From an uncultured Sphaerochaeta sp. (GTDB lineage: Bacteria; Spirochaetota; Spirochaetia; Sphaerochaetales; Sphaerochaetaceae), in contig NZ_OY763408.1 in assembly GCF_963667405.1 (NCBI RefSeq), positions 434,001-498,000 of the forward strand: a DNA stretch of 64,000 nt. The letters are read 5' to 3'. The translations under genes and the position numbers were made by a program. Shown piece by piece: positions 1,637 through 25,816 of this stretch. The number at the start of each line of letters is the position of its first letter. Positions within the stretch are counted from its first letter, which is position 1. The notes beneath the pieces were generated by a model. That model was not told the DNA's origin, ran no database searches, and saw only the letters and a list, made by a program, of their open reading frames with translations.

Positions 1637-1695
1637 CAGGTGCAGTATGGCACACGATGTGTACAAATGCAATCCATTTTACGCAGGAGAGACCT

Positions 1696-3056: not shown

Positions 3057-3084
3057 GTAGAGCAGAATGCACAGGAGGTTTGTC

Positions 3085-7662: not shown

Positions 7663-7677
7663 GATTCTGCTACCATT

Positions 7678-7701
7678 GGCTCCTGCCTTCGGGCGGGAGC
7701 C
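7678..7701 (+). terminator. Intercistronic stem-loop after rhaS
   Basis: A 10-pair stem (GGCTCCTGCC with GGCGGGAGCC, one T-G wobble) closes a TTCG tetraloop and is followed by a modest T stretch. It lies between the binding-protein gene and the ATPase gene. Such elements stabilise the upstream message or partly terminate transcription, giving more binding protein than membrane subunits. Confidence 0.75.
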
Positions 7702-7732
7702 TTCGATTTTCGGTGCAAACCAAGGAGGAACA

Positions 7733-9250: not shown

Positions 9251-10247
9251 CGATAGATCTTTAGCCTCCTTTGTCAAAAAAGCCTTTGCACGAAGGGAGT
9301 CGACCCTGATTCTTCTGCTCTTTGTCCTGTTGGTGCCCATATCGGTGCGGAGTCCTCAGTTTCTGTCGATGAAGAATATCTCCACCATCCTCAACGATAT
9401 GGCCATCCTGTCCATCGTTGCCATTGGTGAGTTCTATGTCATTCTCTCCGGGGGTATCGATCTTTCGGTAGGCTCCATCATCGCCTTCTCCGGCATGGCC
9501 TGCGGAATGGTCAATGAGTCGCATCCAGAGTTGAGTCCTGCCTTGCTGCTTTTGCTGGGAATCGCCATCGGTGTTGCCATGGGCCTGGTGAATGGCCTTC
9601 TGGTTGCCTATGGCAAGATTCCCCCGATCATCACCACCTTGGGGACGGTGAACATCTACCGTGGCATGACCTTTCTCCTCAGCAAGGGCACTTGGGTCAC
9701 CGCCCATGAGATGAGCCCTTCGTACATCGCCCTGCCTCGGACCACCTTCATCGGTATCTCCATCCTGCTTTGGATAGCCTTCTTTGTCATTGCACTCTGC
9801 TACTACTTCAGCAGGTTCACCCGCACCGGGCGTGAGATCTATGCCATCGGGGGCAACCCGACCGCTGCCAAGTTTGTCGGTGTCAACGAGAACCGTGTAC
9901 GTGTGGTGGTCTTTCTGGTCAGTGGGGCCCTCTGTGGTCTTGCAGGGGCGCTGTGGACCGCACGCTATGCATCGGCGGTCAATGAGATGGCAACCGGTTT
10001 TGAGATGCAGGCAGTCGCTGCCTGTGTCCTGGGGGGTGTGAACTTCTCCGGCGGGGCTGGCGGCATCATCGGTGTGGTGCTGGGGACCCTCTTTCTGGGG
10101 GTTGTCACCAACGCCCTACCGGTCATCTATCTTTCGGTATTCTGGCAGACATTCGTCCAGGGCCTGATCATCCTGCTGGCCTTGGCCCTCAATACCTTAT
10201 CTGACCAGCACAAGAACAAGAAGCTACTTGCACAGAGGAGAGGTTAG
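9243..10247 (+). CDS. rhaP: Rhamnose ABC transporter permease 1
   Basis: A 334-residue inner-membrane permease of the RbsC/BPD_transp_2 type. It has a charged N-terminus, about nine or ten membrane segments, FYVILSGGIDLSVGSI (family signature after the third helix) and the cytoplasmic loop GREIYAIGGNPTAAKFVGV that contacts the ATPase. Its start overlaps the ATPase gene by 8 bases. Two different permeases here indicate a heterodimeric channel, as in rhizobial rhamnose transporters. Confidence 0.88.
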   Translation: MPDDRSLASFVKKAFARRESTLILLLFVLLVPISVRSPQFLSMKNISTILNDMAILSIVAIGEFYVILSGGIDLSVGSIIAFSGMACGMVNESHPELSPALLLLLGIAIGVAMGLVNGLLVAYGKIPPIITTLGTVNIYRGMTFLLSKGTWVTAHEMSPSYIALPRTTFIGISILLWIAFFVIALCYYFSRFTRTGREIYAIGGNPTAAKFVGVNENRVRVVVFLVSGALCGLAGALWTARYASAVNEMATGFEMQAVAACVLGGVNFSGGAGGIIGVVLGTLFLGVVTNALPVIYLSVFWQTFVQGLIILLALALNTLSDQHKNKKLLAQRRG

Positions 10248-10250
10248 CAG

Positions 10251-11288
10251 ATGGAAGGACAGCGAGACCTGGTGGCCAAAGGCCGCCTCATCAATGAAAT
10301 GTCGCTGAAGAACCGGCTGATCGAGTTCTTCACCAAGTGGGAAGTGCTGCTGGTCATCATCTTCATCGGCGTATTCGTATTCTTTACCCTCAGGACCCCC
10401 TACTTCCTGGATTGGTTCAACCTGATGAACGCTTCCTTCCAGTTCTCTGAGAAGGCGATCATGGCCCTGCCGATGATCTTCATCATCATGTGTGGGGATA
10501 TCGACATCTCCATCGCGTCCATCATCGCACTCTGTGCGTATGTGGTGGGTTCTGCAGCCCAGGGTGGGGCATCGATTCCTTCCCTTATCTTTCTTTCGCT
10601 CTTGGTAGGAACCCTTGCAGGCCTCTTCAACGGTCTGATGATCACGAGTCTGGATATGCCTGCAATTGCCGTGACCTTGGCCACCCAATCCATCTTTCGT
10701 GGCATCTCCATCGGACTGCTGGGTGACCAGGCCCGCACAACCTTTCCCGAAGGGTTCGGGTTCTTCGGCCAGGAGTTCATCAAGGGAACCATCATTCCCT
10801 TTGAATTTGTGCTCTACTTGGTACTGATGCTGGTGTTTGCCTTCATCCTGCACAAGACGACCTACGGCCGAAGGCTGTATGCCATCGGAAACAGTGCAGA
10901 GGCTGCACGGTTCAGTGGGGTGAATGTGAAGCTTACCAGGGTCATCAATTTCACCATCACCGGGTTCTTCTGTGGTTTGACTGCCGTGCTTCTGGCAAGC
11001 CGCATCCTCTCGGTCCGCTCGAACATCGCCACCGGCTGGGATCTGGAGATCATCACCTTGGTCGTCCTGGGTGGAGTTGCCATCACCGGCGGACGTGGTA
11101 CAGTCTTCGGGGTCTTCCTCGGCTCTCTCTTGGTCGGCTATCTGAAGTTCGGCATGGGCCTGCTCAAGTTCAGCGGGACGCTGATGACCATTGTCATCGG
11201 AAGCCTCCTGATCAGTGCAGTGTTGCTGCCGAGGCTGCTGGATCTCTACAAGGCAAACCGAAAGCTTCGGCTTCAGGCACAACGATAG
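10251..11288 (+). CDS. rhaQ: Rhamnose ABC transporter permease 2
   Basis: The second permease subunit, 345 residues, with the same architecture: MIFIIMCGDIDISIASI matches the permease signature and GRRLYAIGNSAEAARFSGV is the ATPase-coupling loop. It starts 3 bases after rhaP ends, with AGGAGAGG ahead of its ATG. Compared with rhaP it has a slightly longer charged N-terminus. It presumably pairs with the product of 9243-10247. Confidence 0.88.
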   Translation: MEGQRDLVAKGRLINEMSLKNRLIEFFTKWEVLLVIIFIGVFVFFTLRTPYFLDWFNLMNASFQFSEKAIMALPMIFIIMCGDIDISIASIIALCAYVVGSAAQGGASIPSLIFLSLLVGTLAGLFNGLMITSLDMPAIAVTLATQSIFRGISIGLLGDQARTTFPEGFGFFGQEFIKGTIIPFEFVLYLVLMLVFAFILHKTTYGRRLYAIGNSAEAARFSGVNVKLTRVINFTITGFFCGLTAVLLASRILSVRSNIATGWDLEIITLVVLGGVAITGGRGTVFGVFLGSLLVGYLKFGMGLLKFSGTLMTIVIGSLLISAVLLPRLLDLYKANRKLRLQAQR

Positions 11289-11294: not shown

Positions 11295-11609
11295 ATGATG
11301 CGACAGGCGTTTGTGATGCAATTGAAAAAAGGGTTTGAGGAAGAGTATCAGAAGCGGCATGATGCCATTTGGCCGGAGCTCAAGGCACTGCTCAGCGAGA
11401 GCGGGGTGTATGACTACTCGATTTTCCTGGATCGGGAGAGCGGGAGACTGTTTGCCTTCCAGAAAGTTCGGGGTACCAGCGGCTCCCAGGATCTTGGGAC
11501 AAACCCAATTGTCCAGAAGTGGTGGGCGTATATGGCTGATATCATGGAGACACATCCAGACAATTCCCCCATCTCGCTCCCCCTCGAAGAGGTGTTTCAT
11601 TTGGAGTAA
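11295..11609 (+). CDS. rhaM: L-rhamnose mutarotase
   Basis: Interconverts alpha- and beta-L-rhamnose so that the isomerase is not limited by anomer supply. The 104-residue product matches RhaM over its whole length: RQAFVMQL, RHDAIWPEL, YDYSIFLD and WWAYMADIMETHPDNSP, with the conserved His and Tyr. Two adjacent ATG codons (11295 and 11298) are possible starts after AGGAGTGA. It is last in the transporter operon; its stop lies in the first arm of the inverted repeat that flanks the promoter of the next gene. Confidence 0.95.
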   Translation: MMRQAFVMQLKKGFEEEYQKRHDAIWPELKALLSESGVYDYSIFLDRESGRLFAFQKVRGTSGSQDLGTNPIVQKWWAYMADIMETHPDNSPISLPLEEVFHLE

Positions 11610-11659
11610 CACTTTCTCTTGATTTATCTAGAGAAACATAATAGAATCGAAAGTGTTAC
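11606..11659 (+). promoter_or_regulatory. Promoter flanked by an inverted repeat, upstream of the DeoR regulator
   Basis: A -35 (TTGATT, 11619-11624) and a -10 (TAGAAT, 11642-11647) are 17 bases apart. The core is bracketed by perfect 11-base inverted arms, GTAACACTTTC (11606-11616) and GAAAGTGTTAC (11649-11659). A shorter nested repeat TTTCTC...GAGAAA lies inside. This layout fits autorepression by the DeoR protein encoded 31 bases downstream, with a dimer at each arm or a loop across the promoter. Confidence 0.75.
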
Positions 11660-11689: not shown

Positions 11690-12445
11690 ATGCTAGGGCT
11701 CTCCCCTCGTGAGGAAAAGATTCTCCAGTTGCTGCGCAGCGGAGAAGAGTATCCGGTCACCCGGCTCAGTTTGGAGCTTGGGGTGTCTGCAGTCACCATC
11801 AGAGGCGATTTGAGAGACCTTGATGCAAAAGGTCTGGTGGTTCGTTCCCATGGCAGGGTGGTGGTCGCTTCCTCCCCCCAAGCTTCGTTCAGGGATGGTT
11901 CGAATACCTCCCAGAAGGAAGCAATCGCCAAATGTGCGGCTTCCTTGGTGAAGGACAATGATTGCATCATGATCACCAACGGTTCGACCTGCTCCCTGAT
12001 CCCCCGGTATCTCTTTGGAAAACGGAATGTGAAGGTGGTGACCAACTCCACCCTCATTCTTCCCTATGCACGGGCTAACTCCCAGCTGAACGTCACCCTG
12101 GTAGGAGGCGAGTACCGTCCCCAGGCGGAAGCTCTGGTAGGACCTGCCGCCATCAGCCAGATTGAGGATTACCACGTCATCACCACGTTTTTCGGTACCG
12201 ACGGTTTCACCTTGGAACATGGCCTCACCACCAGCCTGGTGGAAAATGCACAGGTGGTTCAGCGCATGTGCAGCCAGGGCACGAGAAGGGTGCTCTGCGT
12301 CGACTCATCGAAGGTCGGCAACCGTGGGTTTGTCAGAATCATGCCAGTTACAGAGATTGATACCATTGTCACCGACAGTGGCTTTCCCCGTGACCTCATC
12401 ACCGCGCTCGAGGAGCAGGGGGTTGAGGTCATCATTGCACAATAG
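11690..12445 (+). CDS. DeoR/GlpR-family transcription regulator
   Basis: A 251-residue repressor-type protein. An N-terminal winged helix-turn-helix (PREEKILQLLRSGEEYPVTR, then LGVSAVTIRGDLRDL) precedes a DeoR C-terminal sensor domain of the sugar-phosphate isomerase fold (VTNSTLILPYAR, LVGGEYRP, FFGTDGFTLEHGLTT, VCSTD-like LCVDSSKVGNRG). DeoR sensors usually bind phosphorylated sugars, so rhamnulose-1-phosphate or a downstream metabolite is a reasonable inducer guess. It heads the operon that ends with rhamnulokinase and has its own promoter with flanking inverted repeats. Confidence 0.9.
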   Translation: MLGLSPREEKILQLLRSGEEYPVTRLSLELGVSAVTIRGDLRDLDAKGLVVRSHGRVVVASSPQASFRDGSNTSQKEAIAKCAASLVKDNDCIMITNGSTCSLIPRYLFGKRNVKVVTNSTLILPYARANSQLNVTLVGGEYRPQAEALVGPAAISQIEDYHVITTFFGTDGFTLEHGLTTSLVENAQVVQRMCSQGTRRVLCVDSSKVGNRGFVRIMPVTEIDTIVTDSGFPRDLITALEEQGVEVIIAQ

Positions 12446-12457
12446 AGGAGTATTCAG

Positions 12458-13771
12458 ATGGCACAGCAAGTAGTGATGCCCAAGCAGGGAAACTCGGTTG
12501 AGTCCTGCATCATCGTCGAATGGAAGGTTTCTGTAGGGGACAAAGTCTCCGTCGGTGATATCCTGTGTTCGGCGGAGACGGATAAATCCACCATCGAAGT
12601 TGAGTCTACCGCAGAGGGTGTGCTGCTTGCACAGCTCTATGCTGAGGGCGATGAGGTCCCGGTGATGCAAAGCGTTGCCGTCATTGGGGAAGCGGGGGAG
12701 AAGGTGGAACTTCTCTCTGCAGCTGCACCGCAAGAAGTCAAGGAAGAGGAAGCATCCGTGGTCCCCGAGACCAAGGCAGCGAGCCCTGTTTCCCCGCAGA
12801 GCTCTGTCCAGGCTCTGGGTGCCAGTCCCCGTGCGAAGGCCCTTGCCGAGAAAGAGGGCTTGCCCCTCGATTCCCTCCAGGCTTCAGGCCCGAAAGGAAG
12901 GATCATTGAACGCGACGTGTTGGCAGCCAAAGGCCAGCCACTCTCCCCGCTTGCCCGCCAAAAGGCACTGGAAGAGGGGCTTGCCGCTCCCCGGCAGGGC
13001 AGTGGCATCGGCAACAGGGTGCTTGCATCCGACTTGGCCAAGGTGCCTGCCTCTGTTGTGCCGGCGCTTGCTGAGGAAGTGACCGAGATCCCGGTCAAGG
13101 GCGTGCGCAAGGTGACGGCGCGCAGGATGATGGAGTCGATCCACTCCACCTGCCAGCTCTCATTGCATGCATGGGCTGATGCCAGGGCGCTCAAGCGCCT
13201 GCGTGCCGATTTCAAGGCCAGCAGTGCCGAACTCGGCCTTGGAGGCATCACGATCAATGATCTGGTGCTCTTTGCCGTCTCCAGAACCTTGTTGCAGTAC
13301 CCTGCGTTCAACGCACACTTCTTGGGAGACCGGATGCTCCGCTTTGGCCATGTCCATCTGGGCGTAGCAACCGATACGGCCAAGGGACTGTTGGTTCCCG
13401 TGCTCAGAAACAGTGACATGCTCAGTCTCAAGCAGCTTTCGCTTCAGACCAAGGCCTTGGTCGGCAAGTGCAAGGACGGAACCATTGCGCCGGACGATCT
13501 GACCGGTTCCACCTTTACCGTCAGCAATGTCGGTTCCTTCGGCATCGAGGCATTCACCCCGGTGCTCAATGTTCCTGAGGTGGCAATTCTCGGGGTGGGA
13601 ACCATCGCCCTCAAGCCGGTTGAGGATGAGGATGGCGATGTAACGTTCATCGAGCACATCGGCCTGTCGCTTACGATGGATCACCAAGCTGTTGATGGTG
13701 CTGATGCGGCACGCTTTTTGCGCAGCCTGATGGACAATATCGCCAAGATCGACCTTTTGATGGCATTGTAG
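12458..13771 (+). CDS. Dihydrolipoamide acyltransferase (E2) of a 2-oxoacid dehydrogenase complex
   Basis: Core subunit that carries the acyl group on lipoate and transfers it to CoA. In its 437 residues are one lipoyl domain (modified Lys43 in ETDKSTIEV), an Ala/Pro/Glu linker, a peripheral-subunit-binding domain at about 122-154 (ASPRAKALAEKEGLPL...GPKGRI), a second similar but degenerate one at about 162-194 (LSPLARQKALEEG), and the catalytic domain with His409 and Asp413 in DHQAVDG. Two binding domains in tandem are unusual. It starts 12 bases after the DeoR gene and precedes E3 and E1; the substrate cannot be read from sequence. Confidence 0.9.
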   Translation: MAQQVVMPKQGNSVESCIIVEWKVSVGDKVSVGDILCSAETDKSTIEVESTAEGVLLAQLYAEGDEVPVMQSVAVIGEAGEKVELLSAAAPQEVKEEEASVVPETKAASPVSPQSSVQALGASPRAKALAEKEGLPLDSLQASGPKGRIIERDVLAAKGQPLSPLARQKALEEGLAAPRQGSGIGNRVLASDLAKVPASVVPALAEEVTEIPVKGVRKVTARRMMESIHSTCQLSLHAWADARALKRLRADFKASSAELGLGGITINDLVLFAVSRTLLQYPAFNAHFLGDRMLRFGHVHLGVATDTAKGLLVPVLRNSDMLSLKQLSLQTKALVGKCKDGTIAPDDLTGSTFTVSNVGSFGIEAFTPVLNVPEVAILGVGTIALKPVEDEDGDVTFIEHIGLSLTMDHQAVDGADAARFLRSLMDNIAKIDLLMAL

Positions 13772-13781
13772 GAGCGCATGT

Positions 13782-15134
13782 ATGCAGCAGTATGATTTGA
13801 TGGTTATCGGCAGCGGCCCCGGCGGCTATGTGGCTGCAGAACGGGCCGGTGCCTTGGGCAAGCGGGTGTTGCTGGTCGAGAAAGACCAGTTCGGCGGGGT
13901 GTGCACCAATTGGGGGTGCATCCCGACCAAGAGCCTGCTCAACAGTGCCAAGCAGTATCGGCATGCCCAGGAAGGGGAGCGCTTCGGCGTCAGGGCCGAA
14001 GGGGTCACCTTCAGTCTTGCCGATGCCATGGCTTGGAAGGAAGAGACGATCAAGACGCTGAGAAGCGGAATTGAATACCTGATGAAAGCGAACAAGGTGA
14101 CTGTGGTCTTAGGTGAGGCGAAGGTCTTGGATGCTCATCACATCCAGGTGGGAGAGACCACCTATGAAGGCTCCTATCTGATACTTGCCACCGGCTCGTC
14201 CCCCTTTGTTCCCCCGATTCCCGGTTCCAAGCTGGCGCATGTACTGACCAGCGACCAGATCCTGTCGCTTGCCGAGATTCCTTCCTCCCTGGTCGTCATC
14301 GGCGGCGGGGTCATCGGCGTTGAGTTTGCCTCCTTCTTCTCCATGATCGGGACCAAGGTCACCGTCATTGAGATGATGAGCGAGATCCTTCCGATGATGG
14401 ACGGCGAGTTTGCAAAGCTCATGCGCCGTGAACTCAAGGATGTGGATTTCCACCTCGGCTGCAAGGTTGAGGAGATAACGGCAGAAGAAGTCCGCTATAC
14501 CGATGCCAAGGGCGTTAGGCAGGCAGTTCCCGCCTCGCTGGTTTTGATGAGTGTAGGCAGGAAGCCCAACACCCAGGGCCTGGAGCAGCTGGGACTGGAT
14601 ATCGACCGCAGGGGAGTCGTAGTCAATGACCGCATGCAGACCAACCTCTCCTCCGTCTATGCCATCGGCGATGTGAACGGCCGTTCCCTGCTTGCCCACA
14701 GTGCTTCGCGCATGGCAGAGGTTGCAGTGGCAAACATCTTCGGCAACAAGCAGATGCGCATGCGCTACCATGCCATCCCCTGGGCTGTCTACGGCAACCC
14801 GGAGTCGGCTGGGGCCGGCATGACGGAGCGCGAAGCTGAGAAGCTTGGCATCCCCGTACGTTCCCAGACAGTGCAGATGAGGGCAAACGGACGCTTTCTG
14901 GCCGAGCATGGCAAGAAGGCCTCAGGTTTGGTGAAGGTCATCTGCCATCGTGACACCCAAGCCATCGTAGGCATCCACCTGCTCGGACCGTACAGCAGTG
15001 AGATGATCTGGGGCGCGGCCGCCCTCATCGAGGCTGAACTGCGTGTGCAGGATGTCAAAGAGATAGTATTTCCCCATCCAAGCGTATCGGAACTGATCAA
15101 GGACGCTTGTTTCGCACTCGACCATACCCTCTAA
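13782..15134 (+). CDS. Dihydrolipoamide dehydrogenase (E3)
   Basis: Reoxidises the E2 lipoate with NAD using FAD and a redox disulfide. The 450 residues show the FAD motif GSGPGG (10-15), the disulfide Cys41/Cys46 in GGVCTNWGCIPTKSLL, the NAD motif GGGVIGVEF, the second FAD motif YAIGDVNG, and the C-terminal His432/Glu437 pair in FPHPSVSE. All catalytic elements are present. It lies 10 bases after E2 and 25 before the fused E1, so this operon encodes its own complete complex. Confidence 0.93.
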   Translation: MQQYDLMVIGSGPGGYVAAERAGALGKRVLLVEKDQFGGVCTNWGCIPTKSLLNSAKQYRHAQEGERFGVRAEGVTFSLADAMAWKEETIKTLRSGIEYLMKANKVTVVLGEAKVLDAHHIQVGETTYEGSYLILATGSSPFVPPIPGSKLAHVLTSDQILSLAEIPSSLVVIGGGVIGVEFASFFSMIGTKVTVIEMMSEILPMMDGEFAKLMRRELKDVDFHLGCKVEEITAEEVRYTDAKGVRQAVPASLVLMSVGRKPNTQGLEQLGLDIDRRGVVVNDRMQTNLSSVYAIGDVNGRSLLAHSASRMAEVAVANIFGNKQMRMRYHAIPWAVYGNPESAGAGMTEREAEKLGIPVRSQTVQMRANGRFLAEHGKKASGLVKVICHRDTQAIVGIHLLGPYSSEMIWGAAALIEAELRVQDVKEIVFPHPSVSELIKDACFALDHTL

Positions 15135-15159
15135 CGGGTTACAGATAAGGAGATTTCAC

Positions 15160-17613
15160 ATGGCCAGGACCCTTTCATTCGATCCCGCAAAACTCAGGGA
15201 GAAACAGACGCTCACCATCGCTCCGATCCCGGTGAACCAGTACCAGAGTGATTTCAAGAAGGAACTCAAACTGTACGGCAAGGATCGCCTGATCCGCGCC
15301 TACTACGATATGCTCCTGATCCGCAAGTTCGAGACAATGCTGGACACCATCAAGAAAGAGGGTGTCTACCAGGGCATCTCCTACAACCACAAGGGCCCTG
15401 CCCATCTCAGTGCAGGCCAGGAGAGTGCTGCCGTCGGACAGGCGATGGTGCTCGATCCCGAGGACCAGATCTTCGGAAGCCACCGAAGCCATGGGGAGAT
15501 CCTGGCGAAGAGCCTCTCTGCAATCCACAAGATGGAGGACGCAGAGCTGCTTTCCATCATGCAGTCCTTCATGGACGGCCAAACCTACAGGGTGGTGGAG
15601 AAATACTTCCCCGCTGAGAGCGTCCGTGAGCTGGCCGAGCACTTCGTGCTCTACGGAGCGCTTGCTGAGATCTATGCCAAGAAGACCGGCTTCAATGCAG
15701 GTCTCGGTGGTTCCATGCACACCTTTTTCAAGCCTTTCGGCTCCATGCCCAACAACGCCATCGTAGGCGGTTCGTGCACCATTGCCGTAGGGGCTGCGCT
15801 CTTCAAGAAGATCAACCGCAAGAAGGGAATCGTCATTGCCAACATCGGTGATGGATCCTTGGCCCGCGGCCCGGTCTATGAAGGACTTGTGCTCTCTTCC
15901 ATGGACCAGTACAAGACACTGTGGGAGGAAAATCCCGGCTATCCCCCGTTCCTGCTCAACTGCTTCGACAACCTCTACGCCATGGGAGGCCAGCCGATCG
16001 GGGAAACCATGGGCTACCAGGTGGCTGCACGCGTTGGTGCGGGTATCAACGAGCGCTCGATGCACACCGAGCGTGTCGATGGCTTCAATCCCCTGGCGGT
16101 TGCAGATGCTACGGCCAGGAAGAAGGCCATCCTGCTCAAGGGGGAAGGTCCTGCCTTCCTCGATACGCTGACCTACCGCTACAGCGGCCACAGCCCCAGT
16201 GATGCGATGACCTACCGCACCAAGGAGGAGTTGGAAGCGTTCCGCAACCAGGATCCCATCGTCTCCTACGGAAACTACCTTATTGAGAACAAGCTGGTCA
16301 GCCAGGCAGACCTTGATGCCTTTGATGCAAAGCTTGAGGAGAAGATGCGCAAGACCCTTGAGATCACGGTCGACCCTGTTCTCAGCCCTATGGTTGATGA
16401 GGCCTTCATCGAGTCGGTCATGTTCTCCAACGGCAGTGTGGAGAAGCTGGACAGTGCGGAGCCCATCCTGTTGCAAAAGCTTGAGGAGAATCCTCGCGTG
16501 CAGCAGATTGCCAAACGCAGCCGCTATGCCTATGACGAGAGTGGCAAGGAGCTGCCGTCGGCCCGTCAGTACCAGTATCGCGATGCCGTCTTTGAGGCGA
16601 TGGCCCATCGCTTTGCCATCGATCCCACCATGGTTGCCTATGGGGAGGACCATCGTGACTGGGGTGGCGCGTTCGCCTGTTACCGTGGCCTGACCGAACT
16701 GCTTCCGCCCTCACGCTTCTTCAACTCCCCGATCTCCGAAAGTGCCATTGTCGGCAGTGGGGTTGGGTATGCCATGGCCGGAGGAAGAGCGGTTGTCGAA
16801 CTGATGTATTGCGACTTCCTCGGCTGTGCAGGGGACGAAGTGTTCAACCAGATGCCCAAGTGGCAGGCAATGAGTGCCGGTGTGCTGAAGATGCCTCTGG
16901 TGCTCCGTGTTTCGGTTGGCAACAAGTACGGCGCCCAGCACTCCCAGGAGTGGACCAGCATGGTTGCCAGCGTACCCGGCCTGAAGGCGATGTATCCGGC
17001 AACCCCGTATGATGTGAAGGGCATGCTCAACTACGCCCTCCGCGGTACCGACCCGGTGGTCTTCTTCGAGAGCCAGAAGCTCTACGGCATCGGGGAGATG
17101 TTCGTCAAGGAAGGAGTACCCGAAGGTTACTATGAGATTCCCGAGGGAGAACCTGCAGTCAAGCGGGTGGGCAAGGACATCACCCTCATTGCCTTGGGAC
17201 CAGCCCTCTATACGGCAACCAAGGCGGCCGATGAGCTCGCCAAGCGCGGTGTGGAGGCTGAGGTGATCGACCTGAGGTGGATCAACCCCCTCAAGTACGA
17301 GATCTTGGTGGAGTCGGTTAAGAAGACCGGCCGTTGCGTTCTGGTGACCGACAGCAGCGAGCGTGGCAGTTACCTGCATACTGTTGCATCGAATCTGGGA
17401 AGGCTTGCCTTCGAAGCACTGGATGCTCCTCCGATCGTCGTCGGTTCCAAAAACTGGATCACCCCGCCTGCAGAAATGGAAGAGTACTATTTCGCCCAGG
17501 CCAGCACGATCCTGGATGCAATCCATGAGCAGATCCTGCCGTTGGGTGGGTATCAGCCGAAGCACAACTATACCGATGGGGAGTTCGCCCGTACCAGCAA
17601 GAAGGGAGTGTGA
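15160..17613 (+). CDS. Fused E1 alpha-beta thiamine-dependent dehydrogenase
   Basis: Decarboxylates or cleaves a keto substrate with thiamine diphosphate and acylates the E2 lipoate. A single 817-residue chain joins E1-alpha (about 40-450; GSHRSHGEILAK, then the TPP site GDG at 230-232 with CFDNLYA further on) to E1-beta (from about 485; YGEDHRDWGGAF). The alpha half has an insertion of about 50 residues after the SHRSHG stretch and a long TPP loop, unlike pyruvate or branched-chain E1. Substrate candidates are pyruvate, another 2-oxoacid, or a diketone as in acetoin dehydrogenase. Operon position ties it to rhamnose metabolism. Confidence 0.87.
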   Translation: MARTLSFDPAKLREKQTLTIAPIPVNQYQSDFKKELKLYGKDRLIRAYYDMLLIRKFETMLDTIKKEGVYQGISYNHKGPAHLSAGQESAAVGQAMVLDPEDQIFGSHRSHGEILAKSLSAIHKMEDAELLSIMQSFMDGQTYRVVEKYFPAESVRELAEHFVLYGALAEIYAKKTGFNAGLGGSMHTFFKPFGSMPNNAIVGGSCTIAVGAALFKKINRKKGIVIANIGDGSLARGPVYEGLVLSSMDQYKTLWEENPGYPPFLLNCFDNLYAMGGQPIGETMGYQVAARVGAGINERSMHTERVDGFNPLAVADATARKKAILLKGEGPAFLDTLTYRYSGHSPSDAMTYRTKEELEAFRNQDPIVSYGNYLIENKLVSQADLDAFDAKLEEKMRKTLEITVDPVLSPMVDEAFIESVMFSNGSVEKLDSAEPILLQKLEENPRVQQIAKRSRYAYDESGKELPSARQYQYRDAVFEAMAHRFAIDPTMVAYGEDHRDWGGAFACYRGLTELLPPSRFFNSPISESAIVGSGVGYAMAGGRAVVELMYCDFLGCAGDEVFNQMPKWQAMSAGVLKMPLVLRVSVGNKYGAQHSQEWTSMVASVPGLKAMYPATPYDVKGMLNYALRGTDPVVFFESQKLYGIGEMFVKEGVPEGYYEIPEGEPAVKRVGKDITLIALGPALYTATKAADELAKRGVEAEVIDLRWINPLKYEILVESVKKTGRCVLVTDSSERGSYLHTVASNLGRLAFEALDAPPIVVGSKNWITPPAEMEEYYFAQASTILDAIHEQILPLGGYQPKHNYTDGEFARTSKKGV

Positions 17614-17620
17614 CCAAAGC

Positions 17621-18955
17621 ATGGATATCCGATTGTGGGAAGAACAGCTCTCTGACCTCAGCAAGCAGACACGACTGGATGCTGCCCTGAATCTGGGGCA
17701 GTCCATCAGGGAGGGGAGTCTGACAAGAACAGTGCTGGAGGAGGTGAACAACCATGTGCACACCACCTACTCCTTCAGCCCCTATGAGCCTTCTGCAGCC
17801 GCGTATGCGGCTTGGAAGGCGGGGTTGGGCATTGTCGGAAGCATAGACCACGATAGCATCGGGGCGGCAGAGGAAATGCTGCTCTCCTGTCAGCATCTCG
17901 GCCTTGCAAGCACGGTCGGCTTCGAGCTGCGGGTCAGTTTCCTCGATACCCCGCTCTCTGACAGGAAGATCAACAATCCTGACAGTGAGGGTATCGCCTA
18001 TATCTGCATCCACGGGGTTCCCCGTCAGAGAATCGGGGAGGTGGAAGCCTTCCTGAAGCCCTTGCAAGAGGTGCGCAACAAGCGCAACAAGGCGCAGGTG
18101 GAGGCTTTGCAGGCCCTCGTCGGCCAGTATGGCTTTGATCTTGACTTCGAGCGGGATGTCCTGCCCCTTTCACGCCATGAGGAGGGAGGTTCGGTCACCG
18201 AGCGTCACATCCTCTACGCAATGGCCAACCAGTGCATCGCCATGATGGGAAAAGGACAGAAGCTTGTCGATTTCCTGGAGAAGGAACTCGGTCTTTCTGT
18301 TCCTGCAAAGCTGGCGACCCTCTTGCTGGATGCGCAGAATCCACACTATGCCTACGACCTGCTGGGCCTCTTCAAGAGCTCATTTTTGCCGCGTTTCTTC
18401 ATTCAGCCCGGCAGGGAGGAGTGCCTTGATGTACGGGAGGTGGTTGCCTTCTCCAATCGCATCGGCTCCATTGCAGCCTATGCCTACCTGGGGGACATTG
18501 CACAGAGTGTCACCGGCGACAAGAAGGCGGAGAAGTTCGAGGATGAGTTCCTTGAGCAGTTGCTTGACCTCTTGGTTGACATCGGCTTTCCTGCCATCAC
18601 GTACATGCCTCCCCGCAATACCGAGGCACAGATGAAGCGCCTGCAGACACTTGCCAAGGCGCGTGGCTTGATGGAGATCAGCGGGGTGGACATCAACTCA
18701 AGCAGACAGAGCATGAACTGTCCAGAGTTGCTCCTGCCCTCTGCCCACCATCTGGTGGACAGTGCCTGGGCCTTGGTTGCCCACGAAAAGCTCTCTTCCG
18801 TCAATCCTGCCTTGGGGTTGTTCTGTCAGGACAATCCCCATGCAAAGGCAAGTCTGGAGAAGAGAATCGCCTATTATGCCTCTTTGGGGAGGGCGATGGA
18901 TGCAACCAAGCCGTACTCCCTGATTGAACAGTTTGAAGAAAAGGAGTTGTCATGA
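17621..18955 (+). CDS. PHP-domain protein of unknown role
   Basis: A 444-residue protein with the PHP metal-dependent phosphoesterase signature near its start: NNHVHTTYSFSPYEPSAA (HxH at 45-47) and GIVGSIDHDSIGAAEE (Asp76, His77, Asp78). After about residue 200 it is largely helical with no motif I recognise; SGVDINSSRQSMNCPELL near the end may supply further metal ligands. PHP proteins hydrolyse phosphate esters, but the substrate here is unknown. It sits between the E1 gene and a short-chain dehydrogenase whose start overlaps its stop (ATGA). No signal peptide. Confidence 0.75.
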   Translation: MDIRLWEEQLSDLSKQTRLDAALNLGQSIREGSLTRTVLEEVNNHVHTTYSFSPYEPSAAAYAAWKAGLGIVGSIDHDSIGAAEEMLLSCQHLGLASTVGFELRVSFLDTPLSDRKINNPDSEGIAYICIHGVPRQRIGEVEAFLKPLQEVRNKRNKAQVEALQALVGQYGFDLDFERDVLPLSRHEEGGSVTERHILYAMANQCIAMMGKGQKLVDFLEKELGLSVPAKLATLLLDAQNPHYAYDLLGLFKSSFLPRFFIQPGREECLDVREVVAFSNRIGSIAAYAYLGDIAQSVTGDKKAEKFEDEFLEQLLDLLVDIGFPAITYMPPRNTEAQMKRLQTLAKARGLMEISGVDINSSRQSMNCPELLLPSAHHLVDSAWALVAHEKLSSVNPALGLFCQDNPHAKASLEKRIAYYASLGRAMDATKPYSLIEQFEEKELS

Positions 18956-20109
18956 AGTTTACCCTACGCCTGGAGCAGGAGTTGCCCCCCGTCCTGCGGG
19001 GTCTGACCTTCGATGGCCAGAAAGGCTTGTTCATCCACCGGACCGAGGGAAAGAAGGTCGATCTCACGCTTCCTGCTGCACGGGTGGGGGATTCGGTCGA
19101 GGAGAAGGCCGGAGCGTGGAAAGCCCTTCTGGACGCTTACACCGAGGCAAGGAGGCTTTATCCTGCTGTCATCGGATTCGAAGGTCTTGAACTGCAGTTC
19201 GGACTGGGCACCAACTACGATGAGGCGGTGAGGGCCGAAGGGGTGAGTGCCCTTCCTGTCCTTCCCCCCTCCACCAGCCGCGCTGATGTGGTGCGCGACA
19301 AGATTGCCTTGGTCACCGGTGGTGCCCAGGGATTCGGGGAAGGCATGGTGCGATCCCTTGTCGAGCACGGGGCGTTTGTCTTCATTGCCGATATGAATGC
19401 GGAAGGGGCGCAAAAGCTTGCCGATGAGCTGAACTATGAGGCGTGCATCACGGTTGCCAAGAGTATTCCTGTCAATGTCACCGATGAGCTTTCGGTCATG
19501 CAGATGATGGATGAGGTCGCAAGTCAGACCGGCTCGCTCGACTTGTTCATCTCCAATGCCGGGGTGCTCAGGGCAGGTTCGGTCAAGAGCATGGCCCTGA
19601 AGGACTTCCAGTTCGTCACCAATGTCGACTACACAGGCTTTTTCATCTGCTCCAAGTTTGCTTCGCAGCAACTGGCCTTGCAGAATGCCGCTTCCCATGC
19701 CTACTACACCGATATCATTGCCATCTCCAGCAAATCGGGGTTGGAAGGTTCCAACAAGAACGGGGCGTACGCCGGGGCGAAATTCGGAACGATCGGGCTG
19801 ACGCAGAGCTTTGCCCTGGAGCTGGTCGAAGACAATATCAAGGTGAATGCCGTATGCCCGGGCAACTTCTTGGATGGTCCGCTCTGGTCGGATCCTGAGA
19901 AGGGCCTGTTTGTGCAGTATCTTGCAGCGGGGAAGGTTCCCGGAGCCAAGACGATTGCAGATGTGAGACGGTTCTATGAGGCCAAGGTGCCCATGAATCG
20001 CGGGTGCAGGACCGAGGATGTCATGAAGGCGATCCTGTACATAGTCGAACAGACCTATGAGACTGGCCAGGCGGTCCCGGTGACCGGCGGGCAGGTCATG
20101 CTGAACTAG
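18952..20109 (+). CDS. Short-chain dehydrogenase with N-terminal extension
   Basis: An NAD(P)-dependent oxidoreductase of 385 residues. The Rossmann core starts near residue 115: TGGAQGFGEG (122-131), SNAG (201-204), catalytic Ser260, Tyr273 and Lys277 in GAYAGAKFG. The first 110 residues form a separate domain I do not recognise. The core resembles sorbitol-6-phosphate 2-dehydrogenases and the dehydrogenase half of RhaEW. Either reading fits rhamnose use: oxidation of lactaldehyde, or of a deoxyhexitol phosphate together with the adjacent SorE-like enzyme. Its start overlaps the PHP gene stop. Confidence 0.82.
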   Translation: MKFTLRLEQELPPVLRGLTFDGQKGLFIHRTEGKKVDLTLPAARVGDSVEEKAGAWKALLDAYTEARRLYPAVIGFEGLELQFGLGTNYDEAVRAEGVSALPVLPPSTSRADVVRDKIALVTGGAQGFGEGMVRSLVEHGAFVFIADMNAEGAQKLADELNYEACITVAKSIPVNVTDELSVMQMMDEVASQTGSLDLFISNAGVLRAGSVKSMALKDFQFVTNVDYTGFFICSKFASQQLALQNAASHAYYTDIIAISSKSGLEGSNKNGAYAGAKFGTIGLTQSFALELVEDNIKVNAVCPGNFLDGPLWSDPEKGLFVQYLAAGKVPGAKTIADVRRFYEAKVPMNRGCRTEDVMKAILYIVEQTYETGQAVPVTGGQVMLN

Positions 20110-20118
20110 GAGTATCCC

Positions 20119-21393
20119 ATGAAAACACGTGCTATCAGACTGTATGGCGTCAATGACCTGAGACTTGAGGAGTTTGAGCTTCCCCCCATCGCGCAGGATG
20201 AGATTCTTGCCAAGGTGGTCACCAACAGCATCTGCATGAGTGATCACAAGGCTGCAGAGCAGGGAGCAAGCCACAAGCGGGTGCCCAATGACATCGACAA
20301 GAACCCCATCATGCTCGGCCATGAGTTCTGTGGCGAGATAGTTGAGGTGGGTGAGAAGTGGAAATCCAAGTTCAAGGTTGGCTCGCGCTTCTCGATCCAG
20401 CCGGCTCTCAACTACCAGGGTACCCTCGATGCACCAGGCTATTCGTTCCGCTATATCGGAGGCGATGCCACCTACGTCATCATCCCTCATCAGGTGATGG
20501 AACTCGACTGCCTGCTTCCCTATGACGGAGAGGCTTTCTTCCTGGGCAGCCTTGCTGAGCCTGTTTCCTGTGTGGTGGGAACCTTCCATGCAATGTACCA
20601 CACGACCAACGGCAGCTATGTCCACGATATGGGCATCGTCGAAGGCGGCAACCTTGCCATCATCGCCGGAGTGGGCCCGATGGGTCTCTCTGCCATCGAC
20701 TACGCCCTGCACAACACCGGACGCAAGCCCGGCAGGCTTGTGGTGACCGATATTGATGATGCGCGGCTTGCCAGGGCACAGTCCTTGTACAGCCTCGAGG
20801 ATGCCAAGGCAAATGGGGTGGAGTTGATCTACCTGAACACCAAAAACCTTGCAGACCCGGTGAAAACAATGATGGAGCTCACCGAGGGCCATGGCTTTGA
20901 TGATGTGCTGGTCATGGCTCCGGTCCGTGCACTGGTTGAGCAGGCCGATGCCATTCTTGCCAAGGATGGGTGCCTGAACTTCTTTGCAGGTCCGAACAAG
21001 ACCGATTTCTCAGCCAGCATGAACTTCTACAATGTGCACTACGGCTCCACCCACATCGTCGGCACCAGCGGTGGCAACACCGATGACATGCGCGAGTCGC
21101 TCGCCCTGATGGAGAAGGCTTTGATCAACCCGGCCGCCATGGTGACGCATATCGGTGGTCTTCCGGCCGTTCCTGAGGCGGTCATCAATCTTCCTTCCAT
21201 CCCCGGTGGCAAGAAGATGATGTATACCCATCTTGATTTTCCGCTCACGGCCTTGGATGATCTGGCGGAAATCGGGAAAGACAATCCTTTGTTTGCCCAC
21301 CTCGCGGTACTGGTTGAGAAACACAATGGCCTTTGGAATGCCGAGGCCGAGGCGTATCTCATGGAGCACTGCACCAAGCGCGTCAAGGAGTAA
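20119..21393 (+). CDS. Zinc-type dehydrogenase, L-sorbose-1-phosphate reductase-like (SorE)
   Basis: A medium-chain dehydrogenase of 424 residues. Likely catalytic zinc ligands are Cys39 (ICMSDH) and the His68/Glu69 pair in MLGHEFCGE; the four-Cys structural zinc loop is absent. The nucleotide site is AGVGPMGLSAIDY. Length and overall pattern resemble SorE, which reduces L-sorbose-1-phosphate to glucitol-6-phosphate and works with a short-chain dehydrogenase, exactly the neighbour found here. A rhamnulose-1-phosphate-like substrate is therefore possible but unproven. It lies 9 bases after that dehydrogenase and 2 bases before rhamnulokinase. Confidence 0.8.
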   Translation: MKTRAIRLYGVNDLRLEEFELPPIAQDEILAKVVTNSICMSDHKAAEQGASHKRVPNDIDKNPIMLGHEFCGEIVEVGEKWKSKFKVGSRFSIQPALNYQGTLDAPGYSFRYIGGDATYVIIPHQVMELDCLLPYDGEAFFLGSLAEPVSCVVGTFHAMYHTTNGSYVHDMGIVEGGNLAIIAGVGPMGLSAIDYALHNTGRKPGRLVVTDIDDARLARAQSLYSLEDAKANGVELIYLNTKNLADPVKTMMELTEGHGFDDVLVMAPVRALVEQADAILAKDGCLNFFAGPNKTDFSASMNFYNVHYGSTHIVGTSGGNTDDMRESLALMEKALINPAAMVTHIGGLPAVPEAVINLPSIPGGKKMMYTHLDFPLTALDDLAEIGKDNPLFAHLAVLVEKHNGLWNAEAEAYLMEHCTKRVKE

Positions 21394-21395
21394 GG

Positions 21396-22823
21396 ATGAA
21401 GAAGCATATTGCCATCGATCTGGGGGCCTCCAACGGGCGGGTCCTGGTAGGGGACCTCTCCAGCTTTGAGGTGGTTCACCGGTTCGTCACCCACAATGAC
21501 CAGATCCTGGGGGAGTTCTATTGGAACATCCAGGGTCTGTTCAGTGAGATCAAGGTTGGGCTTCGCAAGGCCTTCGCCCTCTATGGGGATGCGATTGCCT
21601 CCATCGGCATCGATACCTGGGGGGTGGACTACGTGCTCACTGATGCGAAGGGCAGCCTGGTCTCGTTGTGCTATCACTATCGTGACAGCCGCACCGACGG
21701 CCTGATCGAGGAGGTTGCCCAAAAGCTCGGTGGCAAGATGCGCATCTATGAGCAGACCGGCATTGCGTTCCAGCCGTTCAATACGCTCTACCAGCTGAGG
21801 GCGATGCAGCGCGATCGTCCCCAGACCCTTGCCGCTGCCGCCCACTATCTCTCGGTTCCCGATCTGCTTGCCTATTGGCTGACCGGGGTCATGAGCAATG
21901 AGCGCAGCCATGCATCGACGACCCAGCTCTACGATCCAAGGACAGGGACCTGGGCATGGAAGCTCATCGATGAGCTTGGGCTGGACCGTTCGCTCTTTTC
22001 CCCGATTGTGGACAGCGGAACCGTACTTGGGCCCCTGACGGTGGAAGTCTCCCACGAGGTGGGAGCTCCCGCTTCAGTGGTCGTCATCGCCACAGCAGCC
22101 CACGACACCGCCAGTGCGGTGGCTGCTGTTCCTTCAGCGGAGGGTGAGACGCCCCTATATATCTCCAGCGGCACCTGGTCGCTGCTGGGTGTTGAACTGG
22201 AAACTCCCCGCATGGATGAGCAAGCCCTGCAAAGCGGCTTCACCAATGAGGTCGCTGCAAGTGGGAAAATCCGGTTCCTCAAGAACATCATGGGGATGTG
22301 GATCCAGCAGGAGTGTGTGCGGCATTGGGAGAAAGAAGAGGGGACCGAGATCGCCTGGAAGACCTTGGATGAGCAGACAATCGCCTGCGCTTCCTATCAG
22401 GGATGGATCGACCCCACCGACCAACGGTTCCTCAAGCCAAACACCCATGACAATCTCATGGTCGACCGAATCAACAGCTGGTGTGATGAGCACGGTATCG
22501 GGCGTCCTGCCTCCAAGGGTGAGTACATGGTTGCCATCTACCGCGGCCTTGCGAAAGCGTATGCCAAAGCGATCAAGGATCTGGAGTCGGTGCTGGAAAC
22601 AAAGTTCTCATCGCTGTACATCATCGGCGGTGGCTGCAAGAACGAGATTCTTGACCAGTGGACAGCTGCGGAGACCGGACTGACGGTGTATGCCGGACCT
22701 GTGGAGGCCACGGCTTTGGGCAACCTCATCGTCCAGGCATGGGCTGCCGGGGGGATTTCCAGCCTGCAGGAGGGACGTGACCAGATCAGGGCGCAAGGTA
22801 TGGTGAAGGTGTTCCGGCCGTAG
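21396..22823 (+). CDS. rhaB: Rhamnulokinase
   Basis: Phosphorylates L-rhamnulose at O1 with ATP. The 475-residue FGGY kinase matches RhaB throughout: AIDLGASNGRV (phosphate loop), SIGIDTWGVDYVLTD, YRDSRTDGL, FQPFNTLYQLRAM, YISSGTWSLLG and IIGGGCKNEILDQ with GPVEATALGN in the ATP domain. The ATG at 21396 follows AAGGAGTAAGG, 2 bases past the preceding stop. It closes the DeoR-headed operon rather than sitting with rhaA, so the kinase step depends on a different regulator from the isomerase and aldolase. A terminator follows. Confidence 0.94.
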   Translation: MKKHIAIDLGASNGRVLVGDLSSFEVVHRFVTHNDQILGEFYWNIQGLFSEIKVGLRKAFALYGDAIASIGIDTWGVDYVLTDAKGSLVSLCYHYRDSRTDGLIEEVAQKLGGKMRIYEQTGIAFQPFNTLYQLRAMQRDRPQTLAAAAHYLSVPDLLAYWLTGVMSNERSHASTTQLYDPRTGTWAWKLIDELGLDRSLFSPIVDSGTVLGPLTVEVSHEVGAPASVVVIATAAHDTASAVAAVPSAEGETPLYISSGTWSLLGVELETPRMDEQALQSGFTNEVAASGKIRFLKNIMGMWIQQECVRHWEKEEGTEIAWKTLDEQTIACASYQGWIDPTDQRFLKPNTHDNLMVDRINSWCDEHGIGRPASKGEYMVAIYRGLAKAYAKAIKDLESVLETKFSSLYIIGGGCKNEILDQWTAAETGLTVYAGPVEATALGNLIVQAWAAGGISSLQEGRDQIRAQGMVKVFRP

Positions 22824-22843
22824 GATCACCATGAGCTTTTTCG

Positions 22844-22876
22844 TACTGGGTTTTTTCGTAGACCCAGTATTTTTTT
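22844..22876 (+). terminator. Terminator of the DeoR-rhaB operon
   Basis: TACTGGGT (22844-22851) pairs with ACCCAGTA (22862-22869) and is followed by seven T bases. It ends the operon 20 bases past the rhaB stop and separates it from the regulatory region of the next transporter. Confidence 0.85.
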
Positions 22877-23010: not shown

Positions 23011-23118
23011 GGATTTGACAAAAGGGAATTAAAAAATCGTTCTAGAAAGCGAAAGAACGAGAACGTATCAAGCTTGCCAGGAGGCGTAATCCTGGATAAC
23101 GAACAAAAGGAGTTTCCT

Positions 23119-24195: not shown

Positions 24196-24209
24196 GAAAC
24201 ATCGCAGAT

Positions 24210-24235
24210 GTGTCTCCTGCTCCGGCAGGAGACAC
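24210..24235 (+). terminator. Intercistronic stem-loop after the binding-protein gene
   Basis: An 11-pair perfect stem (GTGTCTCCTGC with GCAGGAGACAC) around TCCG, without a strong T run. It sits in the same place as the hairpin after rhaS and probably sets subunit ratios by protecting the upstream message. Confidence 0.75.
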
Positions 24236-25790: not shown

Positions 25791-25816
25791 GGAAAAGAGG
25801 GAGATACGGAATAATC

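What the first reader, a model, noticed from the sequence alone, without database searches (positions are those of the whole stretch)
12458..22823. One operon joins a complete E1-E2-E3 complex with PHP, SorE-like and short-chain dehydrogenases and rhamnulokinase
Known rhamnose routes need isomerase, kinase, aldolase and a lactaldehyde enzyme. Here rhamnulokinase is the last of seven tightly packed enzyme genes that also encode a thiamine-dependent acyl-CoA-forming complex, a PHP phosphoesterase-like protein and a SorE/SorD-like reductase-dehydrogenase pair. This may be an alternative fate for rhamnulose phosphate: reduction and re-oxidation at another carbon, followed by thiamine-dependent cleavage to acyl-CoA, in the way acetoin dehydrogenase splits a diketone. 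A simpler reading is oxidation of lactaldehyde-derived pyruvate.
Basis: partly seen in the sequence, partly recalled or inferred. Interest (0 to 1): 0.75.

Follow-up and report, generated by a model that had tools for sequence, protein, structure and literature searches.

The report
Acetyl-CoA route for fucose and rhamnose
A conserved set of bacterial genes that travels with the genes for the sugars rhamnose and fucose is predicted to cut those sugars at an unusual place, which would give acetyl-CoA directly instead of the usual lactaldehyde.

Summary
The operon is real: DeoR regulator, E2, E3, fused E1, PHP phosphoesterase, short-chain dehydrogenase (SDR), SorE-like reductase and RhaB-like kinase (11690-22823). 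Of 60 related loci with enough downstream sequence, 48 keep PHP, SDR and SorE. In 248 genomes of the class, 75 of 104 with this E1 have L-rhamnose isomerase, 92 rhamnose or L-fucose isomerase. Fucose isomerase also lies at the window edge: a shared rhamnose/fucose module.

Mechanism (inferred, 0.45): SorE reduces C2 of the 6-deoxyketose-1-phosphate, the SDR oxidises C5, and the complex splits the resulting 1-deoxyketose-6-phosphate into acetyl-CoA and a tetrose phosphate. For: 51% identity to annotated SorE; SDR closest to sorbitol-6-phosphate dehydrogenase by profile and tree; E1 distinct from the genome's PDH-type E1; lactaldehyde reductase in 2 of 92 E1-bearing versus 13 of 29 E1-free users; one single-contig genome with fucose isomerase and the module whose only class II aldolase homologue is AraD. 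Against: 72 of 75 rhamnose genomes with this E1 keep a RhaE-type aldolase; the tetrose phosphate's fate is unknown; nothing is assayed. Main rival: aldolase, lactaldehyde, pyruvate.

The parts
11690..12445 (+). DeoR-family regulator, first gene of the unit
   Evidence: PF00455, PF08220; found in 33 of 80 related loci, many of them short contigs
11608..11657 (.). inverted repeat AACACTTTC/GAAAGTGTT overlapping a promoter-like site 11619-11647, possible operator
   Evidence: in 127 loci searched the pattern was found only in L002, which is near-identical
12458..13771 (+). E2, lipoyl domain, E3-binding domain, acyltransferase domain
   Evidence: PF00364, PF02817, PF00198; PDH E2 equivalog 261 bits, cut-off 722
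13782..15134 (+). E3 dihydrolipoyl dehydrogenase
   Evidence: TIGR01350 485 bits, above cut-off 408.8
15160..17613 (+). E1, alpha and beta parts fused (817 aa), distinct subfamily with a 43-residue insertion relative to the genome's PDH-type E1
   Evidence: PF00676, PF02779, PF02780; 30% to the genome's PDH-type E1; alignment
17621..18955 (+). PHP metal-dependent phosphoesterase-like protein
   Evidence: PF02811 19.6 bits, below its 26.4 cut-off; AlphaFold2 pLDDT 93.8, best PDB matches PHP phosphoesterases 3e0f/3o0f and 2yb1
18952..20109 (+). SDR, nearest to sorbitol-6-phosphate dehydrogenase, with 112-aa N-terminal extension
   Evidence: PRK12384 223 bits, cut-off 307; best PDB chain 5o3z; tree
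20119..21393 (+). SorE-like zinc dehydrogenase (ketose-1-phosphate reductase)
   Evidence: 51% over 415 columns to annotated Klebsiella sorE
21396..22823 (+). rhamnulokinase-like FGGY kinase
   Evidence: TIGR02627 440 bits, cut-off 528
22843..22870 (+). terminator-like stem after the last gene
3067..4335 (+). L-rhamnose isomerase RhaA
   Evidence: PRK01076 613 bits, above cut-off 572
4332..5411 (+). class II aldolase of RhaE type, catalytic and zinc motifs kept
   Evidence: PF00596; alignment
6649..11288 (+). rhamnose ABC transporter (binding protein, ATPase, two permeases)
   Evidence: TIGR02637 401 bits, above cut-off 342; permeases
11295..11609 (+). L-rhamnose mutarotase RhaM
   Evidence: TIGR02625 118.6 bits, above cut-off 99.6
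1..1539 (-). L-fucose isomerase FucI, cut by the window edge (G000:C1:433779-435539)
   Evidence: TIGR01089 1020.6 bits, above cut-off 850; open frame
1657..2121 (+). FucU-like mutarotase
   Evidence: PF05025 137.6 bits, above its cut-off; PRK15420 140.4, cut-off 141

Best explanation
The operon is a conserved module that occurs with L-rhamnose and L-fucose isomerase genes, and it likely turns their ketose-1-phosphates into acetyl-CoA plus a four-carbon sugar phosphate. Inferred steps: (1) isomerase and kinase make rhamnulose-1-P or fuculose-1-P. (2) The SorE-like enzyme reduces the C2 ketone, giving a 6-deoxyhexitol-1-P. (3) The SrlD-like SDR oxidises C5, which read from the other end gives a 1-deoxyketohexose-6-P with a methyl ketone; this copies the known conversion of L-sorbose-1-P to glucitol-6-P to fructose-6-P (recalled). 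(4) E1 adds thiamine diphosphate to the methyl ketone and breaks the next C-C bond; the two-carbon unit is oxidised on the E2 lipoyl group and leaves as acetyl-CoA, as acetoin dehydrogenase does with acetoin, while E3 makes NADH. The other product would be a tetrose-4-phosphate (D-threose-4-P if SorE stereochemistry holds). PHP probably dephosphorylates an intermediate or side product. Shown here: gene order, conservation, family relationships, co-occurrence and the alternation with lactaldehyde reductase. Not shown: every reaction.
For: 48 of 60 related loci with at least 4.5 kb downstream hold PHP+SDR+SorE in the same stretch as E1. In 248 class genomes: E1 in 104, 92 of those with RhaA or FucI; SDR in 79, 77 with RhaA or FucI and 75 with E1; E1+SDR+SorE in 66, 64 with RhaA or FucI. 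SorE 51% identical to annotated L-sorbose-1-phosphate reductase. SDR: best profile PRK12384 (223 bits; FabG profile 140, RhaEW profile 129); in the tree it joins SrlD (90/87), not the RhaW half of RhaEW (27-29% identity). In the Caldithrix stretch held (L055) no SDR is found and an MtlD-like mannitol-1-phosphate 5-dehydrogenase (104 bits, below cut-off) stands there instead. E1 relatives on 5 of 5 alphaproteobacterial plasmids read stand beside a lipoyl domain and an alpha/beta hydrolase (annotated acoC in one), with sugar kinases near. The genome has its own PDH-type E1 and a PFOR. FucO over cut-off: 2 of 92 E1-bearing versus 13 of 29 E1-free genomes with RhaA or FucI. G222, one contig, has FucI and the whole module, and its only class II aldolase homologue is AraD; G102 (93% complete) has none.
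Against: 72 of 75 genomes with both RhaA and E1 keep a RhaE-type aldolase, with PSVE, VHxHP and NHG motifs intact in those aligned; in 15 of 19 Bacteroidota/Chlorobiota SDRs the length (650 aa or more) points to fusion with it, domains checked in L060: it looks like a working part. 12 of 104 E1 genomes have neither isomerase; 6 of 60 E1 loci have none of PHP, SDR, SorE; an E1 paralogue (L090) stands with a TRAP transporter. By plain identity a FabG (36.2%) is as near to the SDR as SrlD is (36.2-37.5%), and the tree fork is not starred and the tree has long branches. SDR and kinase fall below NCBIfam cut-offs. No gene for the tetrose phosphate was identified. RhaEW's SDR half is reported to oxidise lactaldehyde (PMC3870299, abstract and passages). 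FucI can also act on D-arabinose (recalled). Relatedness is not corrected for in the counts.
Confidence: 0.45

Rival explanations
1. Aldolase route feeding pyruvate: the RhaE-type aldolase cuts rhamnulose-1-P to DHAP and L-lactaldehyde, the SDR (as in RhaEW) oxidises lactaldehyde to lactate, lactate becomes pyruvate, and the complex is a second pyruvate dehydrogenase.
For: Aldolase with intact motifs next to rhaA, and fused to the SDR in L060 and L098; RhaE-type aldolase present in 77 of 93 RhaA genomes; RhaEW validated in vitro in PMC3870299; E2 best matches PDH acetyltransferase.
Against: SorE and PHP have no role; SDR is nearer SrlD than RhaW; E1 is a separate subfamily with changed loops around the catalytic motifs; a PDH-type E1 and PFOR exist elsewhere; G222 has FucI and the module, and its only class II aldolase homologue is AraD.
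Confidence: 0.22
2. Lactaldehyde reshuffling: SorE and SDR convert lactaldehyde to propanediol to hydroxyacetone, and the complex cuts hydroxyacetone to acetyl-CoA and formaldehyde.
For: Would explain the aldolase, the shared use by fucose and rhamnose, and the scarcity of FucO.
Against: SorE and SrlD act on hexulose or hexitol phosphates (recalled function; relationship); in G222 and G102 no FucA-, RhaD- or RhaE-type aldolase was found; formaldehyde would be toxic.
Confidence: 0.1
3. The complex acts on a different 1-deoxy or ordinary ketose phosphate (for example 1-deoxyxylulose-5-P, or a ketose giving glycolyl-CoA), and its place in rhamnose loci is secondary.
For: E1 relatives sit with XylB-like or PfkB kinases and sugar transporters, without RhaA or FucI annotated in the stretches read (L102-L104, L128, L129) or found in L032.
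Against: In the spirochaete class 92 of 104 E1 genomes have a 6-deoxyhexose isomerase.
Confidence: 0.13

Closest known systems
Acetoin dehydrogenase enzyme system (AcoA, AcoB, AcoC, E3)
   Same: thiamine-dependent E1 alpha/beta, lipoyl E2 and E3; would cleave a hydroxyketone instead of decarboxylating a 2-oxo acid; alphaproteobacterial relatives of this E1 have a lipoyl domain and an alpha/beta hydrolase, annotated acoC in one
   Different: E1 is fused and carries an insertion; the window E2 has an ordinary acyltransferase domain; the operon carries sugar-phosphate enzymes
L-sorbose catabolism (SorE then a glucitol-6-phosphate dehydrogenase; reactions recalled)
   Same: SorE-like reductase at 51% identity and an SrlD-like SDR side by side
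   Different: 6-deoxyketose phosphates made by isomerase and kinase, not a PTS; a dehydrogenase complex follows; the SDR is not close to the one beside Klebsiella sorE (26%)
RhaEW bifunctional aldolase/lactaldehyde dehydrogenase (PMC3870299)
   Same: RhaE-type aldolase and an SDR, fused in L060 and L098, in rhamnose loci
   Different: 25-27% identity of the L060 fusion to the plasmid RhaEW proteins listed; SDR nearer SrlD; far below the TIGR02632 cut-off
Pyruvate dehydrogenase complex
   Same: E1, E2, E3 architecture and the usual catalytic motifs (roles recalled)
   Different: 30% identity to the genome's PDH-type E1; below PDH E1 and E2 cut-offs; sugar operon context

Membership tests
2-oxo acid dehydrogenase complex superfamily | E1 with TPP domains, E2 with lipoyl, E3-binding and acyltransferase domains, E3 | tested here: met
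   Pfam hits for all domains; E3 above TIGR01350 cut-off
Pyruvate dehydrogenase (equivalog) | E1 and E2 above NCBIfam PDH cut-offs | tested here: not met
   E1 alpha 184.5 of 393.85, E1 beta 221 of 321, E2 261 of 722 bits; for comparison the genome's other E1 has 307.9 of 393.85 and 339.6 of 321
Pyruvate dehydrogenase (equivalog) | uses pyruvate | not testable with these tools
   needs enzyme assay
Acetoin dehydrogenase system | AcoC-type alpha/beta hydrolase E2 above PRK14875 cut-off | tested here: not met
   window E2 72 bits, cut-off 307, residues 1-155 only
Acetoin dehydrogenase system | TPP cleavage of a hydroxyketone to acetyl-CoA and aldehyde | not testable with these tools
   needs enzyme assay
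SorE, L-sorbose-1-phosphate reductase | full-length similarity to SorE | tested here: met
   51% over 415 columns
SorE, L-sorbose-1-phosphate reductase | substrate L-sorbose-1-P | not testable with these tools
   needs enzyme assay
SrlD, sorbitol-6-phosphate dehydrogenase | above PRK12384 cut-off | tested here: not met
   223 of 307 bits, though the best NCBIfam family for this SDR; joins SrlD 90/87 in the tree
RhaEW | fused RhaE-RhaW above TIGR02632 cut-off | tested here: not met
   SDR 128.7 and aldolase 93.9 of 567.75 bits; not fused in the window
L-rhamnose catabolism (RhaA, RhaM, rhamnose transporter) | equivalog hits above cut-off in the locus | tested here: met
   RhaA PRK01076 (the other RhaA model, TIGR01748, 550 of 584.95, is not reached), RhaM TIGR02625, binding protein TIGR02637
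Rhamnulokinase | above TIGR02627 cut-off | tested here: not met
   440 of 527.95 bits; best family for this kinase

The most novel reading that the evidence does not exclude
Fucose and rhamnose are cut between C4 and C5: the keto group is walked from C2 to C5, and a new kind of thiamine complex, a 1-deoxyketose-phosphate dehydrogenase (CoA-acetylating), releases the methyl end as acetyl-CoA and leaves D-threose-4-phosphate, with no lactaldehyde. The RhaE-type aldolase kept for rhamnose may work as a C4 epimerase that turns rhamnulose-1-P into fuculose-1-P (as AraD does with pentuloses), so that one line of enzymes serves both sugars. The same E1 family serves other 1-deoxyketoses in alphaproteobacteria.
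Probability: 0.35. Interest if true: 0.88.

Novelty: new variant of a known kind. Interest (0 to 1): 0.72.

Why it matters
Textbook fucose and rhamnose breakdown gives lactaldehyde, which fermenting cells reduce to 1,2-propanediol (see PMC3870299, passages). A route that gives acetyl-CoA from the methyl end would recover energy from that carbon. It would also add a reaction (oxidative thiolytic cleavage of a sugar phosphate) to the 2-oxo acid dehydrogenase family, and give a function to proteins now labelled 2-oxoisovalerate or alpha-ketoacid dehydrogenase. One labelling experiment and one enzyme assay would decide it.

Tried and rejected
Ordinary PDH reading: weakened by a separate PDH-type E1 and a PFOR in the genome, not excluded. 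SDR as RhaW: weakened by profile and tree. Chance adjacency: rejected. ORF 382-1614 (+) as a gene: rejected, it lies antisense to FucI. Operator motif as regulon evidence: the half-site is no more frequent in the window than chance (13 matches with up to one mismatch, mean 10.7 in shuffles), and the paired motif is in one of 127 loci, so it was not used. Fold of PHP: says only PHP phosphoesterase. Literature: ten full-text searches were answered and their listings showed no paper describing this route; the library lacks most subscription journals and holds no bioRxiv preprints. Of papers, I saw the abstract, section list and found passages of PMC3870299; the others only as search listings. Recalled, from no call: the SorE, SrlD and acetoin dehydrogenase reactions, AraD epimerase chemistry, the roles of E1 motifs, and all sugar stereochemistry.
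Full report
OBSERVATION. The seven genes at 12458-22823 are real, tightly packed and as described. The unit starts with a DeoR regulator at 11690; a promoter-like site (11619-11647) and a terminator-like stem (22843-22870) frame it, as consensus matches only. The window also holds RhaA, a RhaE-type class II aldolase, a rhamnose ABC transporter and RhaM, and, on the minus strand at its left edge, L-fucose isomerase. The genome is one contig of 3.23 Mb, 98.7% complete. The nearest E1 relatives are from Spirochaetia, many of them named Sphaerochaeta.

CONSERVATION. A scan of the genome collection gave 255 relatives of E1, of which the best 80 were kept, so near kin are over-represented. They come from Spirochaetota, Bacteroidota, Caldithrix, a Trueperaceae MAG and a Chlorobiota MAG. 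Of the 60 loci with at least 4.5 kb downstream of E1, 48 have PHP (either of two sequence groups), SDR and SorE, 52 have two or more, and 6 have none. Where both neighbours are matched nearly full length, the pairs are close (within 300 bases): E3-E1 56 of 57, E1-PHP 28 of 29, PHP-SDR 26 of 26, SDR-SorE 24 of 26, SorE-RhaB 18 of 27; the second PHP group is close to E1 in only 7 of 20. RhaA is in 15 and FucI in 10 of all 80 loci, many of which are short contigs; of 38 loci with 5 kb on both sides, 15 have RhaA or FucI and 26 have some rhamnose/fucose gene. A lipoate ligase is in 7 of 80 (family). HAD phosphatases, extra FucA-like aldolases and FGGY kinases recur in Bacteroidota loci. Of 19 SDRs in the Bacteroidota/Chlorobiota loci, 15 are 650 aa or longer, which fits fusion to a RhaE-type aldolase; the domains were checked in L060 and aligned for L060 and the spirochaete L098.

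CO-OCCURRENCE. In the same 248 genomes of the class: E1 104, RhaA 93, FucI 103, SorE 94, SDR 79, RhaE-type aldolase 84. E1 with RhaA: 75; E1 only 29; RhaA only 18; neither 126. E1 with RhaA or FucI: 92 of 104. SDR with RhaA or FucI: 77 of 79. SDR with E1: 75 of 79. E1+SDR+SorE: 66, of which 64 have RhaA or FucI. Genomes with RhaA or FucI fall in 30 families, and in 25 of these at least one such genome has E1. These counts are not corrected for relatedness, and many genomes are incomplete. E1 without either isomerase: 12 genomes; RhaA or FucI without E1: 29.

FUCOSE, NOT ONLY RHAMNOSE. G023 has one locus with SorE, SDR and PHP beside DeoR, FucI, FucU and a RhaB-like kinase; its E1 is on another contig, and no RhaA was found in it at E<=1e-30. 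G222, a single-contig genome rated 100% complete, has DeoR-E2-E3-E1-PHP-SDR-kinase-SorE in one run (the kinase is 25% identical to an FGGY of L062 and has no NCBIfam match at 1e-25) and FucI and FucU with a second SorE (62%) in another. Its only class II aldolase homologue is AraD (340.5 bits, cut-off 257). G102 (93% complete) has the module and FucI and no class II aldolase homologue; its FucI stands next to a ribulokinase, so it may serve D-arabinose. The other three genomes with FucI and the module but without the RhaE-type aldolase (G022, G023, G129) each have FucA-like proteins, none above a FucA cut-off, and G023 and G129 have AraD too.

THE ENZYMES. The SorE-like protein is 51% identical to a plasmid-borne Klebsiella protein annotated L-sorbose-1-phosphate reductase, and it is the only match at E<=1e-80 in the genome. 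The SDR has SrlD as best PDB chain (147.6 bits, next 114.1) and PRK12384 as best profile (223 bits). In a tree of 19 rows the cassette SDRs join SrlD (90/87, not starred, long branches elsewhere) while the RhaEW halves form their own long branch; by plain identity one FabG (36.2%) is as near as SrlD (36.2-37.5%). Its 112-aa N-terminal extension aligns loosely with the end of the aldolase half of the fused proteins, which suggests descent from such a fusion. In the Caldithrix stretch held (L055) no SDR or PHP was found; a HAD phosphatase and an MtlD-like protein (mannitol-1-phosphate 5-dehydrogenase, 104 bits, cut-off 368) precede E2-E3-E1-SorE. E1 is 30% identical to the genome's PDH-type E1, keeps the usual motifs (SES, AQHSQ, GHS, YR; roles recalled), and differs by a 43-residue insertion (the more distant L094 E1 has most of it too) and by nearly invariant residues such as Arg499, Trp501, Lys589, Trp598 and Arg735 (99-100% of 77 rows). 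PHP models well (pLDDT 93.8) and resembles PHP phosphoesterases.

WIDER E1 FAMILY. On the five alphaproteobacterial plasmids that I read, the E1 (47-51% over its length; split in two frames in one) is followed by a free lipoyl domain and an alpha/beta hydrolase, with a PfkB or FGGY kinase within about 3 kb in four and about 9 kb away in one; none of the five has RhaA or FucI annotated in the stretch, and that annotation is incomplete. L032 (spirochaete) has E2-E3-E1 with a XylB-like kinase and a xylose-type binding protein, both below cut-offs. This favours a sugar-phosphate substrate over pyruvate, and suggests that the family is wider than the rhamnose/fucose module.

LACTALDEHYDE. FucO above its cut-off occurs in 25 of 248 genomes; among genomes with RhaA or FucI it is in 2 of 92 with E1 and 13 of 29 without. 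Ten of the 13 are from one family (f1; families as typed). So the module appears to stand in for lactaldehyde disposal, which fits both the proposed route (no lactaldehyde made) and the pyruvate rival. Other iron alcohol dehydrogenases are present, and only this one enzyme was tested.

MECHANISM AND STEREOCHEMISTRY (inference and recall). If SorE adds hydrogen with the same face as in L-sorbose-1-P to glucitol-6-P, fuculose-1-P gives L-fucitol-1-P and rhamnulose-1-P gives 6-deoxy-L-glucitol-1-P. The C5 carbinol to be oxidised has the same configuration as the one SrlD oxidises. The products are 1-deoxy-D-tagatose-6-P and 1-deoxy-D-sorbose-6-P. Cleavage next to the methyl ketone gives acetyl-CoA and, from both sugars, the same D-threose-4-P. 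Only the fucose product has the C3 configuration that transketolase-type enzymes use, which is why I raise the idea that the retained aldolase epimerises C4 of rhamnulose-1-P. The fate of the tetrose phosphate is open; in G026 a HAD phosphatase and a transketolase follow SDR-SorE-RhaB.

RESULTS AGAINST. 72 of 75 RhaA+E1 genomes keep the RhaE-type aldolase, and its motifs are intact where aligned. RhaEW enzymes from Chloroflexus and Bacillus are reported to oxidise lactaldehyde (PMC3870299, abstract and passages). An E1 paralogue (L090) stands with a TRAP transporter and a sulfolactate-dehydrogenase-like protein. The kinase and SDR miss their cut-offs. FabG is as near to the SDR as SrlD by identity.

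VERDICT. The listings of ten literature searches showed no description of it in the library held.

Noticed in passing
window 1-1539 (-): L-fucose isomerase, cut by the window edge; the + strand ORF 382-1614 is antisense to it.
   Followed up: yes
L055:1652-9992: Caldithrix variant: HAD phosphatase, MtlD-like dehydrogenase, E2, E3, E1, SorE, with no SDR or PHP found in the stretch.
   Followed up: partly
L102, L103, L104, L128, L129: Alphaproteobacterial plasmids carry a relative of this E1 with a free lipoyl domain, an alpha/beta hydrolase (acoC in one) and sugar kinases near; substrate unknown, possibly another 1-deoxyketose.
   Followed up: partly
L090:4747-14354: E1 paralogue (about 48% to the window E1) with its own E2, a TRAP transporter, an SDR and a sulfolactate-dehydrogenase-like protein: perhaps a third substrate.
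   Followed up: partly
L112:8070-14280: FucI and FucU of a single-contig genome run with a second SorE (62%); no aldolase recognised there.
   Followed up: yes
L094:9801-12179: A more distant fused E1 (about 36%) near genes weakly similar to a sugar transporter ATPase and an FGGY kinase.
   Followed up: no
E. coli records H1-H5 (e.g. CP088472.1 14666-15904): Zinc dehydrogenases 53-54% identical to the window SorE, one annotated yggP; function not looked into.
   Followed up: no
window 23074-29025: Galactose/Mgl-like ABC transporter, LacI-type regulator and a zinc dehydrogenase directly after the operon's terminator-like stem.
   Followed up: no
window 5426-6364: Bile acid:sodium symporter family protein between the aldolase and the rhamnose transporter; a protein annotated with the same family stands near E1 in L103.
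   Followed up: no
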